From NCBI RefSeq assembly GCF_015291625.1, contig NZ_CP030047.1:1302001-1366000 (forward strand): 64,000 nucleotides of DNA. Direction: 5' to 3'. A program made the position numbers and the translations under genes. The DNA is from Bradyrhizobium sp. CCBAU 53421 (lineage in GTDB: Bacteria > Pseudomonadota > Alphaproteobacteria > Rhizobiales > Xanthobacteraceae). This document shows positions 40,139-43,194 of the stretch, piece by piece. Below the pieces are notes generated by a model. The model did not search any database, was not told the DNA's origin, and saw nothing but the letters and a program-made list of their open reading frames with translations. Numbering within the stretch: position 1 is the first letter of the stretch; every line of letters starts with the position of its first letter.

Positions 40139-40975
40139 TCAGTGCTGCAGGCTCCTGCCACTCCAGGGTGAGGGCCGCGCCGGCGCGGCCGCGGCGCCGA
40201 CCAGCGGACGCCGATTCCAGTCCAGCACGGAGTCGCTGTGCAACTGCTCGACGACCCACAGGAAATAGACCGAGGCGGGAATGCCGATCAGGTCGAACAC
40301 CAGCATCGAGCCGCTGCCGTGCGTCGTGGCATCGATGAGATGGATCAAGCCGCAGCTGAAGAATACGCCGGCCAGCGCGGTCCCCGACAGCGACCAGACA
40401 CCGGTCGCGAGATAGCGGCGCACCTGATGATCAGCCAGATACCAGCCGACCAGGCCGTAGGTCACGGTCACGAACACATTGGCGTAGAACGTGGCGGAGG
40501 CAACGTCGATCCAGCTGCTCGGATTTGCCGCGCGCGCGGCAAGATCGGCCGACGTGCAAAAGAACGGAACGTTTGCTCCGGGCTGAGCCATCGCCCAAGC
40601 TGCCAGCCAGCCTGCCGTGATGGCGAAGCCGCCGACCAGCAACACCGCGCGATGCGGCGAGACCGCCATCAGTCGCTCGCCCTGACCGCCTAATATCGTC
40701 TCGAACCGCAGGAACACGAAGGTGAGGCCTGCCGGCAGCCCGAGCAGGGTGACGGCGAGCATCGACCAGGTCACGCCTTCGCCCCGCAGCACCTGGAAGC
40801 CGTGCACGAGATGATGCGGGCCGCAGCTTGCAGCCATCATCGAAAATCCGATGCCGAAGCGGGACCAGCCGCGGTATCGATGCAGACTGACCGTTTCCCA
40901 GGCCGACAATAGCCCAAGGCCCGCGTAAGCCAGCCCGATCGCCAGATTGCTGAGACCGATGACGAGATACATCAT
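40139..40975 (-). CDS. Polytopic membrane protein with two ethylene-receptor-like copper-site modules
   Basis: The 278-residue protein has about seven helices and an internal duplication. Module 1 (residues 1-95) has SNLAIGLAYAGLGLL, then ASCGPHHLVHG and LLGLPAGLTFVFLRFE. Module 2 (160-265) has ANVFVTVTYGLVGWYL, FFSCGLIHLID and LIGIPASVYFLWVVEQ. Each gives Asn-x6-Tyr, then Cys-x3-His (N10/Y17/C51/H55 and N166/Y173/C208/H212). In plant ETR1 the copper/ethylene site is D25, Y32, C65 and H69 in helices 1-2. The Asp is Asn in both copies. It is encoded by an ATG overlapping the stop of the upstream GGDEF/EAL gene, so it is probably its input. The homology was judged by eye and not tested. Confidence 0.75.
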   Translation of the reverse strand: MMYLVIGLSNLAIGLAYAGLGLLSAWETVSLHRYRGWSRFGIGFSMMAASCGPHHLVHGFQVLRGEGVTWSMLAVTLLGLPAGLTFVFLRFETILGGQGERLMAVSPHRAVLLVGGFAITAGWLAAWAMAQPGANVPFFCTSADLAARAANPSSWIDVASATFYANVFVTVTYGLVGWYLADHQVRRYLATGVWSLSGTALAGVFFSCGLIHLIDATTHGSGSMLVFDLIGIPASVYFLWVVEQLHSDSVLDWNRRPLVGAAAAPARPSPWSGRSLQH

Positions 40976-42546
40976 CGCGAGACCGTCGCCTTGGTGCCCA
41001 TGGGAGCCCCGATGTGATCAAGGAATTCGTCGATGAAATAATGATGGCCGCGGCGCACCGGTCCTTCCACGGGTTGCGCGGCGTGCAGCGCGCGTCCCGA
41101 GCTCGGATGCCAGAGTGCCTTGGTCAGCATCGGCGCGATCTGATCGGGTGCAACGGGCCGCGAAAAGAAATAGCCCTGCGCAACGTCGCAACCCATCCGG
41201 AGCAGCATTGCGGCCTGCTCGCTCCTTTCCACGCCCTCGGCGATGGTGTGCTTGCCCATCGCATAAGCGAGGCTGAGGATCGACGACACGATCGCCGTGT
41301 CGCCGGGCTCGCTGCTGAGACCGTCGATGAAGCTGCGGTCGATCTTCAACACTTCGGCCGGCATGTCGCGCAGGCGCGACAGCGATGAGTGCTCGGTGCC
41401 GAAATCGTCGATCGCGACGAACACGCCGAGCTGCCGGATCTGATCGAGCACCTGGACGACCTCCTCCGGGGCGCTCATCATGACGCTTTCGGTGATTTCG
41501 AGACACAGCGCGGTCGGATCGACATTGGTGTCGGCGAGGACCTGGCGGAGCTCCTGGATGAAGGTCGGCTCCGCGATCTCGCGGGGCGACATGTTCACGG
41601 TCATCGCCAGCGGGCAACCCGGCATCAGCCTCGTCCACTCGGTGAGCTGGCGGCAGGACTCCTGCAATACCTGCCGTCCGATCTTGACGATCAGCCCACA
41701 TTCCTCGGCGACGGGGATGAAGTCGGCGGGCGAGATGATGCCGCGCTCGGGATGCCGCCAGCGCACCAGCGCCTCGACGCCGACGACGCATCCATCCTTC
41801 AGGCGCACCTGCGGCTGATACTCCACGAACAGCTGTGATTCCCGTAGCGCCGCCCGCAAGTCGGATTCGATTTGAACGCGCTTCTCGGCGCGCGCATGCA
41901 GCTCGTCGTTGAACTCAGCCAGCCGCGCACGGCCGCGGACCTTTGCCGCGTAGAGCGCGGTGTCCGCCTCGCGCAGCAATTGCTCGGCGGGCTTCGTGCC
42001 GGGCTTGCAGTGCGCGAGCCCGACGCTTGCCGAGACCACGACCTCCTTGCCGGAGAGCAGGATCGGTTCCGCCAGGGCGCTGAGGATCCGCCTGCCGAGT
42101 TCCGCTCCGGAGGAGTCCGAGGCGCGCGGATGCAGAACGACCATCTCGTCGCCGCCGAACCGGCTCGCCGTATCTTCCGGTCCAAGACAGCCCAGGATGC
42201 GCCGGGCCATTTCGGACAGCACCTTGTCGCCGCTGCTATGGCCGAGTGAATCGTTGACGAGCTTGAAGTTGTCGAGATCGACGAACAAAACCGCGATCCG
42301 CGCGCCGTCATCGGCTTCGCGCGCCAGTTCATGATCAAGCCGCTCGAGCAGCAGGCTGCGGGTCGGAAGGCCGGTCAGCTGGTCGTGAGCGGCCGTGTGC
42401 ATCAGGCGTGCAATGACGCCGCGCAGGCGCTCGATCTCCGAGTTTGTTCCGAGAGATGGAACAACGGAGTCACGCTCGACGCCCGAATGTTGTTCCCTGA
42501 TCGCAGTCCCGATTCGTATTGGGATATTCGGCCGCAGCCCAGCCAT
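40972..42546 (-). CDS. Diguanylate cyclase/phosphodiesterase (GGDEF-EAL) protein
   Basis: The 524-residue protein (ATG 42546; a TTG at 42603 is further upstream) has a short N-terminal coiled coil (NSEIERLRGVIARLMHTAAHDQLTGLPTR) and no other sensor domain. A GGDEF domain follows, with RFGGDEMVVLHP, where the last Phe is Met. Then comes an EAL domain with most catalytic residues: GVEALVRWRHP, NMSPREI, LEITES, AIDDFGTEHSSLSRL, VLKIDRSFI, IAEGVE and QGYFFSRP. It may act mainly as a c-di-GMP phosphodiesterase. The membrane protein gene overlaps its stop by four bases, supporting a shared signalling unit. Confidence 0.92.
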   Translation of the reverse strand: MAGLRPNIPIRIGTAIREQHSGVERDSVVPSLGTNSEIERLRGVIARLMHTAAHDQLTGLPTRSLLLERLDHELAREADDGARIAVLFVDLDNFKLVNDSLGHSSGDKVLSEMARRILGCLGPEDTASRFGGDEMVVLHPRASDSSGAELGRRILSALAEPILLSGKEVVVSASVGLAHCKPGTKPAEQLLREADTALYAAKVRGRARLAEFNDELHARAEKRVQIESDLRAALRESQLFVEYQPQVRLKDGCVVGVEALVRWRHPERGIISPADFIPVAEECGLIVKIGRQVLQESCRQLTEWTRLMPGCPLAMTVNMSPREIAEPTFIQELRQVLADTNVDPTALCLEITESVMMSAPEEVVQVLDQIRQLGVFVAIDDFGTEHSSLSRLRDMPAEVLKIDRSFIDGLSSEPGDTAIVSSILSLAYAMGKHTIAEGVERSEQAAMLLRMGCDVAQGYFFSRPVAPDQIAPMLTKALWHPSSGRALHAAQPVEGPVRRGHHYFIDEFLDHIGAPMGTKATVSR

Positions 42547-42762
42547 TCCCGTCCCCACTACCACTATAATATCCGGCGACGGTAGGCAGTTTGGAGTTTG
42601 CAAAAGGTTGCGTGAAGGCTGCTCGCGACTTTTGCGCGATAACGATTTGCAAGATGGTTACAAATCTACGACGGGCGCGCGATCCATTTGTTGCGACTTT
42701 CGTCGAGGGACCGTGGGCATGAGCGAAGCCCGCGCGCAATGCGGCGGGCTTCTGCTTGATCG

Positions 42763-43194
42763 TTACCAATGGTGCCAGCGATGATGCCAGCGCGGGTAGC
42801 CGCCGCGATAATACGCGTATGCCGGCCGCACCACGTGACGATAGCGGTAGCCGTAATAGCCCGGCTGGTATCCGCTGTAATATGTCGTGGTGTATCCGCC
42901 GCCCCAGCGATACGGCGCGTAGCCGTAGTCGTCATCATAGCCGTAGGCGCCGTAACCGGGCGCATAATAGGCGGGTGCGTAGCCATAGCCGTACCCGGGA
43001 TAGCCATAGCCGTAGCCGTAGCCGGGGCCCCAGCCATAGGCCGACGAGGCGATGCCGCCGACCACGGCGCCGGCGATCAATCCGCCCGCGAGCGCGGGGC
43101 CGAACCCGCCGCGCGCTTCGGCGGGGGTCGGGGCCGCGACAGCGCTCACCCCAAGCCCACCGACTGTTGCAAGAACAAGGGCTGTCTTCCTCAT
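42763..43194 (-). CDS. Secreted Gly/Tyr-rich hypothetical protein
   Basis: The 143-residue protein has a signal peptide (ALVLATVGGLGVSAVAAPTPAEA), a short Gly/Ala hydrophobic stretch (GPALAGGLIAGAVVGGIASSAYG) and a Gly-Tyr-Pro repeat region (YGYGYPGYGYGYAP). It ends in YPRWHHRWHHW, a His/Trp-rich tail. GY-rich exported proteins of this kind are common in Rhizobiales; the function is unknown. The short tail could bind metal. Confidence 0.75.
   Translation of the reverse strand: MRKTALVLATVGGLGVSAVAAPTPAEARGGFGPALAGGLIAGAVVGGIASSAYGWGPGYGYGYGYPGYGYGYAPAYYAPGYGAYGYDDDYGYAPYRWGGGYTTTYYSGYQPGYYGYRYRHVVRPAYAYYRGGYPRWHHRWHHW

What the first reader, a model, noticed from the sequence alone, without database searches (positions are those of the whole stretch)
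40139..42546. Possible split ethylene (or Cu-dependent) receptor coupled to c-di-GMP
The membrane protein at 40139-40975 has two copies of a helix pair with Asn-x6-Tyr and Cys-x3-His. Module 1 is N10, Y17, C51, H55; module 2 is N166, Y173, C208, H212. In ETR1 the copper/ethylene site is D25-x6-Y32 and C65-x3-H69, and spacing from Asp to Cys is 40 residues in ETR1 against 41 and 42 here. The segments SNLAIGLAY and CGLIHLID read closely like the plant ones. The gene starts inside the stop codon of a GGDEF/EAL gene that has no sensor domain of its own. A plant-associated bacterium with an ethylene input to c-di-GMP would be notable, because ethylene limits nodulation. The Asp-to-Asn change in both copies could alter ligand or metal use.
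Basis: partly seen in the sequence, partly recalled or inferred. Interest (0 to 1): 0.85.

Follow-up and report, generated by a model that had tools for sequence, protein, structure and literature searches.

The report
Duplicated ethylene-receptor-like membrane sensor
A soil bacterium carries a small membrane protein that looks like two copies of the plant ethylene-sensing domain fused in one chain and is encoded right behind an enzyme for the bacterial messenger c-di-GMP, so it is probably a metal-based small-molecule sensor, though ethylene itself is unproven.

Summary
The protein at 40139-40975 (-) heads a family without a Pfam model; Tyr17, Cys51, His55, Tyr173, Cys208 and His212 are all present in 271 of 272 rows. 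Its halves are a duplication. Both resemble the ethylene-receptor domain in one register: in a permissive scan, 310 mostly weak hits put the copper Cys on Cys51 (251) or Cys208 (49); reversed sequences gave 6 hits. AlphaFold predicts three helices, a linker helix, three helices; loop charges give both modules ETR1's orientation, so it looks like a single-chain pseudo-dimer. In 22 of 22 loci a GGDEF-EAL gene lies directly upstream; no other gene is shared with eleven distant loci in the flanks compared.

Ethylene is not shown. The homology is remote (below Pfam's cut-off; hhalign's own probability only 17-22%). Asp25 is usually Asn in module 1 and nearly always in module 2, and Lys91 is missing. 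A review reports that Asp-to-Asn costs ETR1 about 100-fold affinity but leaves it functional; another paper says mutating D25 abolishes binding. Most likely: a copper-based small-molecule sensor acting in trans on c-di-GMP, with ethylene a fair but unproven ligand. New variant of a known kind.

The parts
40139..40975 (-). stand-alone 7-helix sensor gene (P0001, 278 aa), two ethylene-binding-domain-like modules
40694..40972 (-). module 1 (residues 2-94; AF2 helices 2-30, 39-63, 70-94)
40811..40825 (-). C51-G-P-H54-H55 motif of module 1 (Cys/His aligned to ETR1 C65/H69)
40586..40657 (-). linker helix (residues 107-130) that turns module 2 to the same membrane orientation
40211..40495 (-). module 2 (residues 161-255; AF2 helices 161-191, 196-217, 222-255)
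40340..40354 (-). C208-x3-H212 motif of module 2
40163..40234 (-). conserved cytoplasmic C-terminal tail of the sensor (residues 248-271), candidate docking element
   Evidence: role inferred
40972..40975 (-). ATGA overlap of GGDEF-EAL stop and sensor start (translational coupling inferred); 4-nt overlap in 21 of 22 loci, measured from the aligned first codon, which is CTG in L045
40972..42546 (-). GGDEF-EAL partner gene (524 aa from ATG; frame open from TTG 42603)
41926..42393 (-). GGDEF domain, GGDE followed by M/L/V/I in the partners aligned
41155..41862 (-). EAL domain, catalytic motifs kept (motif assignment recalled)
40999..41055 (-). conserved C-terminal tail of the partner (R..H..FIDEFL.HIGAPM), candidate docking peptide
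   Evidence: role inferred

Best explanation
The two genes form a membrane-sensor / c-di-GMP-enzyme pair. The sensor is one chain with two ethylene-binding-domain-like three-helix modules, held in the same orientation by a linker helix. It is thus a single-chain version of the ETR1 transmembrane dimer. Each module probably holds a Cu(I) ion between its Cys and His (C51/H55 and C208/H212). A small copper-binding molecule (ethylene at low affinity, another unsaturated or gaseous ligand, or copper/redox state) would shift the helix bundle. The conserved cytoplasmic tail would pass this to the upstream-encoded GGDEF-EAL protein, which has no recognised sensor domain of its own, and change c-di-GMP synthesis or breakdown. 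Supported by computation: the duplication, the remote homology to the ethylene domain, the conserved residues, the predicted topology and the gene coupling. Inferred: copper binding, physical docking, and the ligand.
For: Homology: an HMM of 24 ethylene domains, run without filters and reported to E 1000, gave 310 domain hits in 272 rows. Its copper Cys column falls on C51 in 251 hits and C208 in 49; His likewise on H55/H212; Asp on N10 and N166; Tyr on Y17 and Y173; no other position had 3 or more. Reversed sequences gave 6 hits, top 3.1 bits against 12.0. hhalign of module 1 and of the merged repeat against the ethylene domain scored 23.5 and 24.5, with 0 of 200 permutations as high (maxima 18.1 and 18.9) and, for module 1, 0 of 60 in an earlier run (maximum 20.5). 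Pfam ETR1_N is the family hit by most members, 18 of 105, best E 5.8e-4, and 5 of 19 in a smaller set; it matches module 1 in P0160, P0164, P0135 and module 2 in P0189. Duplication. Model with pLDDT 83.4, pTM 0.80 and a 3+1+3 helix pattern; positive-inside charges. Coupling: 22 of 22 loci. In the window's genus, 20 of 20 partner orthologues found lie next to a sensor, and 21 of 22 sensor hits have the partner, the exception being a 66-residue fragment. No ORF outside the pair is shared with 11 distant loci. EAL motif residues and a special C-tail are invariant in 15 of 15 partners aligned (window plus 14 of the 22 loci). Precedent: NO-sensing H-NOX proteins act on GGDEF/EAL partner proteins (PMC8846402, passages).
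Against: The homology is remote: hhalign's own probability is only 17% (module 1), 22% (merged) and 4% (whole protein), and a global alignment scores 12.4. The best Pfam score, 20.5 bits, is below the 27-bit cut-off, and 6 of the 10 relatives I picked for that scan had no ETR1_N hit; the window protein has no Pfam hit at E<=1. Of the 310 HMM hits only 30 exceed 5 bits, 58 rows have a best hit below E 1, and the rows are related, so the hits are not independent. Module 2 alone gave no significant hhalign match: wrong register, 1 of 60 permutations as high, and 16.5 against the reversed profile versus 18.5. The third helix aligns poorly. Other families also give weak hits (34 in all; DUF6163 10 of 105; HisKA_4TM best E 0.0035). 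Half of the 22 loci are near-identical Bradyrhizobium (11 at 91% or more). Metal binding, docking and ligand are untested. PDB fold searches gave no informative match.
Confidence: 0.63

Rival explanations
1. It is a true ethylene receptor: both modules bind Cu(I) and ethylene, and plant or microbial ethylene sets c-di-GMP through the partner.
For: Homology in register to the ethylene domain; Tyr, Cys and His kept; Asp-to-Asn in ETR1 is reported to leave a functional receptor with about 100-fold lower affinity, and natural variants exist (PMC13012798, passage); ethylene reduces biofilm in Azospirillum, which has the receptor AzoEtr1 (PMC11819568, passages).
Against: The same Azospirillum paper says mutating C65 or D25 eliminates ethylene binding in ETR1. 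Asp25 is Asn (or Ser/His in module 1) and Lys91, its proposed partner, has no Lys counterpart in any of 272 rows on module 1's third helix or at 224-242 of module 2; Pro36 is Gly in both, and Ile62 is Ala or Phe. Extra invariant His54 and near-invariant His58 have no counterpart in the ethylene domains aligned. Relatives are not confined to Bradyrhizobium (named; habitats not looked up). The host already has a canonical ethylene-domain kinase.
Confidence: 0.32
2. It is a copper or redox sensor: the Cys/His clusters (C51/H54/H55/H58 and C208/H212) sense metal level or oxidation directly.
For: Invariant Cys and clustered His; change of the Asp and Lys linked to ethylene affinity.
Against: The same Cys/His pair serves as a cofactor site in ETR1; nothing here shows metal binding; neighbours were not systematically annotated for copper genes, so context says nothing either way.
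Confidence: 0.25
3. The two modules hold a haem between helices (bis-His or Cys/His) and sense O2, NO or CO.
For: Invariant His on equivalent helices of a pseudo-symmetric bundle; NO sensing by haem partner proteins is known in c-di-GMP control (PMC8846402, passages).
Against: Cys-x3-His in this register is the copper site of ETR1 (PMC6586836, passages); no haem-protein family is among those listed (one search lists 25 of 34).
Confidence: 0.1
4. The protein is only a membrane anchor or scaffold for the GGDEF-EAL enzyme, with no ligand.
For: The enzyme shows no membrane domain in Pfam and is paired in each of the 22 loci examined.
Against: A plain anchor would not be expected to keep Tyr, Cys and His in both modules of 271 of 272 rows.
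Confidence: 0.1

Closest known systems
Ethylene-binding domain of ETR1 / SynEtr1 / AzoEtr1 (Pfam PF25487 ETR1_N)
   Same: Three-helix membrane module, N-out, positive loop after helix 1; Tyr, Cys and His at aligned places; Cys-x3-His copper site; Asp-to-Cys spacing 40 against 41 and 42 here.
   Different: Two modules in one chain with a linker helix; no attached kinase; Asp25 mostly Asn, Lys91 absent, Pro36 is Gly; score below the family cut-off; extra conserved His54, His58, Cys140 and Asp228.
H-NOX with GGDEF/EAL partner (e.g. SwH-NOX and SwDGC)
   Same: A stand-alone sensor protein acting on a separate GGDEF-EAL enzyme (PMC8846402, passages).
   Different: H-NOX is haem-based and soluble (recalled); this is a membrane protein with a proposed Cu site. 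Works like, not a member.
MHYT domain
   Same: Integral membrane sensor common in GGDEF/EAL proteins (PMC8846402, passage).
   Different: Six predicted helices with Met-His-Tyr-Thr motifs; the window protein has no Pfam match.
EBD histidine kinase of the same genome (L003)
   Same: Canonical ethylene domain in the same cell.
   Different: Single module fused to HisKA-HATPase-REC; unlinked gene; keeps Asp and Lys.

Membership tests
Ethylene-binding domain (PF25487 ETR1_N) | score above Pfam's curated cut-off (27 bits) | tested here: not met
   window protein no hit at E<=1; best relative 20.5 bits
Ethylene-binding domain (PF25487 ETR1_N) | sequence homology in register with the ethylene domain | tested here: met
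   with controls; remote, hhalign probability 17-22%
Ethylene-binding domain (PF25487 ETR1_N) | copper ligands Cys65 and His69 | tested here: met
   residues C51/H55 and C208/H212 in 272 of 272 rows; copper itself not tested
Ethylene-binding domain (PF25487 ETR1_N) | Asp25 (22 of 24 sampled domains) | tested here: not met
   module 1 Asn 226, Ser 29, His 13 of 272; module 2 Asn 270 of 272
Ethylene-binding domain (PF25487 ETR1_N) | Lys91 on helix 3 (20 of 24 sampled domains) | tested here: not met
   no Lys in 272 rows at 66-94 or 224-242; Lys in module 2 at 219 (5 rows) and 243 (194 rows); helix-3 register is weak
Ethylene-binding domain (PF25487 ETR1_N) | three transmembrane helices, N-out C-in | tested here: met
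   AF2 model and positive-inside charges, per module; predictions only
Ethylene-binding domain (PF25487 ETR1_N) | saturable ethylene binding | not testable with these tools
   needs 14C-ethylene
Ethylene receptor (EBD plus histidine kinase) | kinase or kinase-like output in the same protein | tested here: not met
   278-aa stand-alone protein; the 10 canonical EBD proteins scanned (of 24) all carry kinase domains
MHYT sensor domain | Pfam match | tested here: not met
   no Pfam family at E<=1 for the window protein
GGDEF-EAL c-di-GMP enzyme (partner) | GGDEF and EAL domains with catalytic residues | tested here: met
   Pfam; EAL E258, N318, E350, D380, D381, K401, E437 invariant in 15 of 15 (assignment recalled); GGDE kept, fifth residue M/L/V/I; activity not tested
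Known solved membrane folds | structural match in the PDB | tested here: inconclusive

The most novel reading that the evidence does not exclude
A second, previously unrecognised branch of ethylene-type (olefin/Cu(I)) receptors: a single-chain pseudo-dimer built by duplication of the ethylene-binding domain, working in trans on a GGDEF-EAL enzyme. It would be a two-gene 'hormone gas to c-di-GMP' module spread over Alpha- and Betaproteobacteria. The Asn in place of Asp would tune it to high local ethylene or to a related ligand.
Probability: 0.32. Interest if true: 0.9.

Novelty: new variant of a known kind. Interest (0 to 1): 0.72.

Why it matters
The bacterial ethylene receptors I read about, and the ten canonical ones scanned here, are three-helix domains fused to kinases. 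A natural single-chain double copy would show how the fold can be rebuilt, and could help structural work, since no solved chain matched the ethylene-domain profile. It would add a metal-based membrane input to c-di-GMP control. If ethylene is the ligand, it would link a plant hormone to c-di-GMP in soil bacteria by a route other than a kinase.

Tried and rejected
Unrelated-fold idea: PDB sequence searches of the protein and family and fold searches gave nothing informative; the one family-profile hit below E 0.001 was 8qag (E 5.1e-4), built from two stretches of E 0.12 and 28, which I set aside. Plasmid carriage: no match in PLSDB. Chance alignment: rejected by permutation and reversal controls. 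Module 2 alone against the ethylene domain by hhalign was not convincing; the case for it rests on the duplication, the HMM register and P0189. Other conserved neighbours: none shared with the 11 distant loci among ORFs of 90 or more codons at E<=1e-20, in flanks that are short for some (L045 4.3 kb, L048 9.9 kb). Wider relatives, own genome counted: 1 of 385 class genomes and 3 of 398 phylum genomes, one of them (G164) a weak hit with stops inside. The scan that gave the 22 named loci used two short peptide patterns and so finds close relatives only. The ethylene domain itself was not folded, because its loci came from the genome search, which is not on the folding tool's list. Structure of the partner was not finished at ten collecting calls and is not used. 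Papers on ethylene domain or receptor plus c-di-GMP terms: the listings (10 of 385 papers listed in 84, 15 of 25 in 72) and the general ones (10 of 53 listed) showed no description of this pair; they cover open-licence PMC only.

Rows dropped or cut before counts: of 26 ethylene-domain places, L020 (my reading frame failed) and L028 (26 residues) were left out, leaving 24; L034, whose frame runs on to 425 codons, was cut to 278 residues. The 272 rows are 250 proteins plus 22 locus translations, 267 distinct. Only the best 120 hits of each of three protein searches could be read (of 374, 531 and 1177).
Full report
What is in the window. On the minus strand a GGDEF-EAL gene (40972-42546 from an in-frame ATG; the frame is open from a TTG at 42603) is followed by a 278-aa membrane protein gene (40139-40975), the two overlapping by ATGA. 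Pfam finds GGDEF and EAL in the first and nothing in the second at E<=1; NCBIfam gives nothing for the second and PHROGs one chance-level hit, E 0.2. The window lies in a 9.26-Mb single-contig genome that is not named; 14 of the 22 named related loci carry the name Bradyrhizobium, which is why I speak of that genus.

The family. Three protein searches gave 374, 531 and 1177 relatives at E<=0.001, of which the best 120 each could be read. Sources name Bradyrhizobium, Paucibacter/Roseateles, Chitinibacter, Pelomonas, Inhella, Rudaea and Ralstonia insidiosa; Inhella and Roseateles are Betaproteobacteria and Rudaea a gammaproteobacterium. In 272 rows (250 proteins plus 22 locus translations, 267 distinct) C51, H54, H55, C140, Y173, C208, H212 and D228 are 272/272; Y17 and H58 271/272; N166 270/272; N10 is Asn in 226, Ser in 29, His in 13. 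The family is rare in sampled genomes, own genome counted: 2 of 60 relatives, 22 of 265 of the genus, 1 of 385 of the class, 3 of 398 of the phylum, one of these a weak broken hit.

A duplication. hhalign of half 1 (1-105) against half 2 (150-262) scores 39.7, probability 91%, P 1.3e-6. Sixty permutations of columns within hydropathy classes reach at most 19.6. C51 lines up with C208 and H55 with H212.

Homology to the ethylene-binding domain. Twenty-four ethylene domains were taken from the PF25487 search (23 of 299 phylum genomes have one). Module 1 against their profile scores 23.5 and the merged two-module profile 24.5 (P about 0.001; hhalign probability 17% and 22%); 0 of 200 permutations reach either (maxima 18.1 and 18.9), and 0 of 60 in an earlier run for module 1 (maximum 20.5). 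Module 2 alone was not convincing: best local match in a wrong register, 1 of 60 permutations as high, reversed profile 16.5 against 18.5. The ethylene-domain HMM run unfiltered over all 272 rows, reported to E 1000, gave 310 hits, 30 of them above 5 bits. The column of ETR1 Cys65 fell on C51 in 251 and on C208 in 49, His69 likewise on H55 and H212, Asp25 on N10 (116) and N166 (52), Tyr32 on Y17 (134) and Y173 (52), and no other position had three or more. Reversed rows gave 6 hits, top 3.1 bits against 12.0. The rows are related, so these are not independent events. In Pfam, ETR1_N is the family hit by most members, 18 of 105, best E 5.8e-4; 33 other families also give weak hits, the next being DUF6163 (10, best 0.011) and DUF4328 (8). 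Of ten relatives picked for a closer look, P0160, P0164 and P0135 match with module 1 and P0189 with module 2 (166-224, E 0.022), all under the 27-bit cut-off; six do not match. I read this as true but remote homology of both modules, better shown for module 1.

Fold and topology. AlphaFold2 on 105 rows gives pLDDT 83.4, pTM 0.80, and helices 2-30, 39-63, 70-94, 107-130, 161-191, 196-217 and 222-255. Charged loops (family mean K+R 3.0, 3.3, 2.4 and C-tail 4.9, against 0.0, 1.0 and 0.3 on the other side) put the N-terminus outside and the C-terminus inside, as in ethylene domains (3.7 and 2.0 against 0.2). The linker helix therefore gives both modules the same orientation, which is what a single-chain copy of the ETR1 homodimer needs; a published ETR1 model has one Cu(I) per monomer at C65/H69 buried in the dimer interface (PMC6586836, passages). 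PDB searches gave no informative match; this is inconclusive.

What is changed at the site. Of the seven ETR1 residues needed for binding (I35, P36, I62, C65, H69 and the count of seven seen in passages of PMC6586836; Asp25 in PMC12643061 and PMC11819568; Tyr32 recalled), the modules keep Tyr, Cys and His; Asp is mostly Asn; Ile35 is Leu or Val; Pro36 is Gly; Ile62 is Ala or Phe. Lys91, predicted to bond with Asp25 (PMC11819568, passage) and present in 20 of 24 sampled domains, has no Lys counterpart in any row at 66-94 or 224-242, though the helix-3 register is weak. One paper says mutation of D25 eliminates binding in ETR1; a 2026 review says Asp-to-Asn gives a functional receptor with about 100-fold lower affinity and that natural variants exist (PMC13012798, passage). 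So the Asn argues for weaker ethylene binding or another ligand, not against copper. H54, H58, C140 and D228 are extra conserved residues.

Coupling to c-di-GMP. In 22 of 22 loci from named genomes the partner gene is directly upstream on the same strand, overlapping 4 nt in 21 (measured from the aligned first codon, CTG in L045) and 8 nt apart in one (L049). Eleven of these loci are at 91% sensor identity or more; the others include Inhella, Roseateles, Bosea, a Rhizobium and a gammaproteobacterial MAG at 53-69%. In the genus, 20 of 257 genomes have a partner orthologue at E<=1e-200 and all 20 lie beside a sensor; of the 22 sensor genomes, G892 also has it adjacent and G801 has only a 66-residue sensor fragment and no orthologue. 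In a comparison of the window with 15 loci, ORFs shared with the 11 distant ones are the two genes and frames overlapping them. The partner keeps the EAL motif residues and GGDE in 15 of 15 aligned (window plus 14 of the 22 loci), with M/L/V/I at the fifth GGDEF place, and ends in an invariant tail R..H..FIDEFL.HIGAPM after a variable linker; 28 other GGDEF-EAL matches in two genomes align no further than residue 515 of 543, before that tail. Both conserved tails are candidate docking parts; that is inference.

Known context. Ethylene domains in bacteria are known (SynEtr1; in Azospirillum, ethylene and loss of AzoEtr1 reduce biofilm and root colonisation; PMC11819568, abstract and passages). 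The ten canonical ethylene-domain proteins scanned here, of 24, all carry kinase domains, including one in this genome. A gene for a diguanylate-cyclase-domain protein is grouped with GeiEtr2 in Geitlerinema (PMC6682694, passage). A review of c-di-GMP sensing has no mention of ethylene or copper (term counts zero) but describes H-NOX sensors that act on GGDEF/EAL partner proteins (PMC8846402, passages). The search listings, some showing only part of the papers found, held no description of this pair.

Verdict. A duplicated, stand-alone, ethylene-domain-like membrane sensor coupled to a c-di-GMP enzyme. It is remotely homologous to the ethylene-binding domain but is not filed as a member, because the curated score, Asp25 and Lys91 were tested and not met. 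Copper binding is likely, the ligand is open, and ethylene is one candidate among several.

Noticed in passing
L003 (G000:C1:2125470-2125760): The same genome encodes a canonical ethylene-binding-domain hybrid kinase (ETR1_N-HisKA-HATPase-REC) far from the window.
   Followed up: partly
window 40999-41055: The partner's C-terminal tail (FIDEFL.HIGAPM) is invariant in 15 aligned partners from Alpha- and Betaproteobacteria after a variable linker and could mark this enzyme subfamily.
   Followed up: partly
G928, G897: Two same-genus genomes carry the partner gene with one in-frame stop; left as found.
   Followed up: no
G801:C39:22928-23125: Only the last 66 residues of the sensor match, without a partner orthologue: a possible remnant of loss.
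   Followed up: partly
window 42763-43194: Small Gly/Tyr-rich protein ORF upstream of the pair with no Pfam match.
   Followed up: no
P0039 (Bradyrhizobium jicamae): One source names this family member 'DUF998 domain-containing', though Pfam gave the window protein no such hit.
   Followed up: no
PMC4686702: Komagataeibacter xylinus raises cellulose output with ethylene although no receptor had been reported (passages); no locus of this family from that genus was among the 22 found.
   Followed up: no
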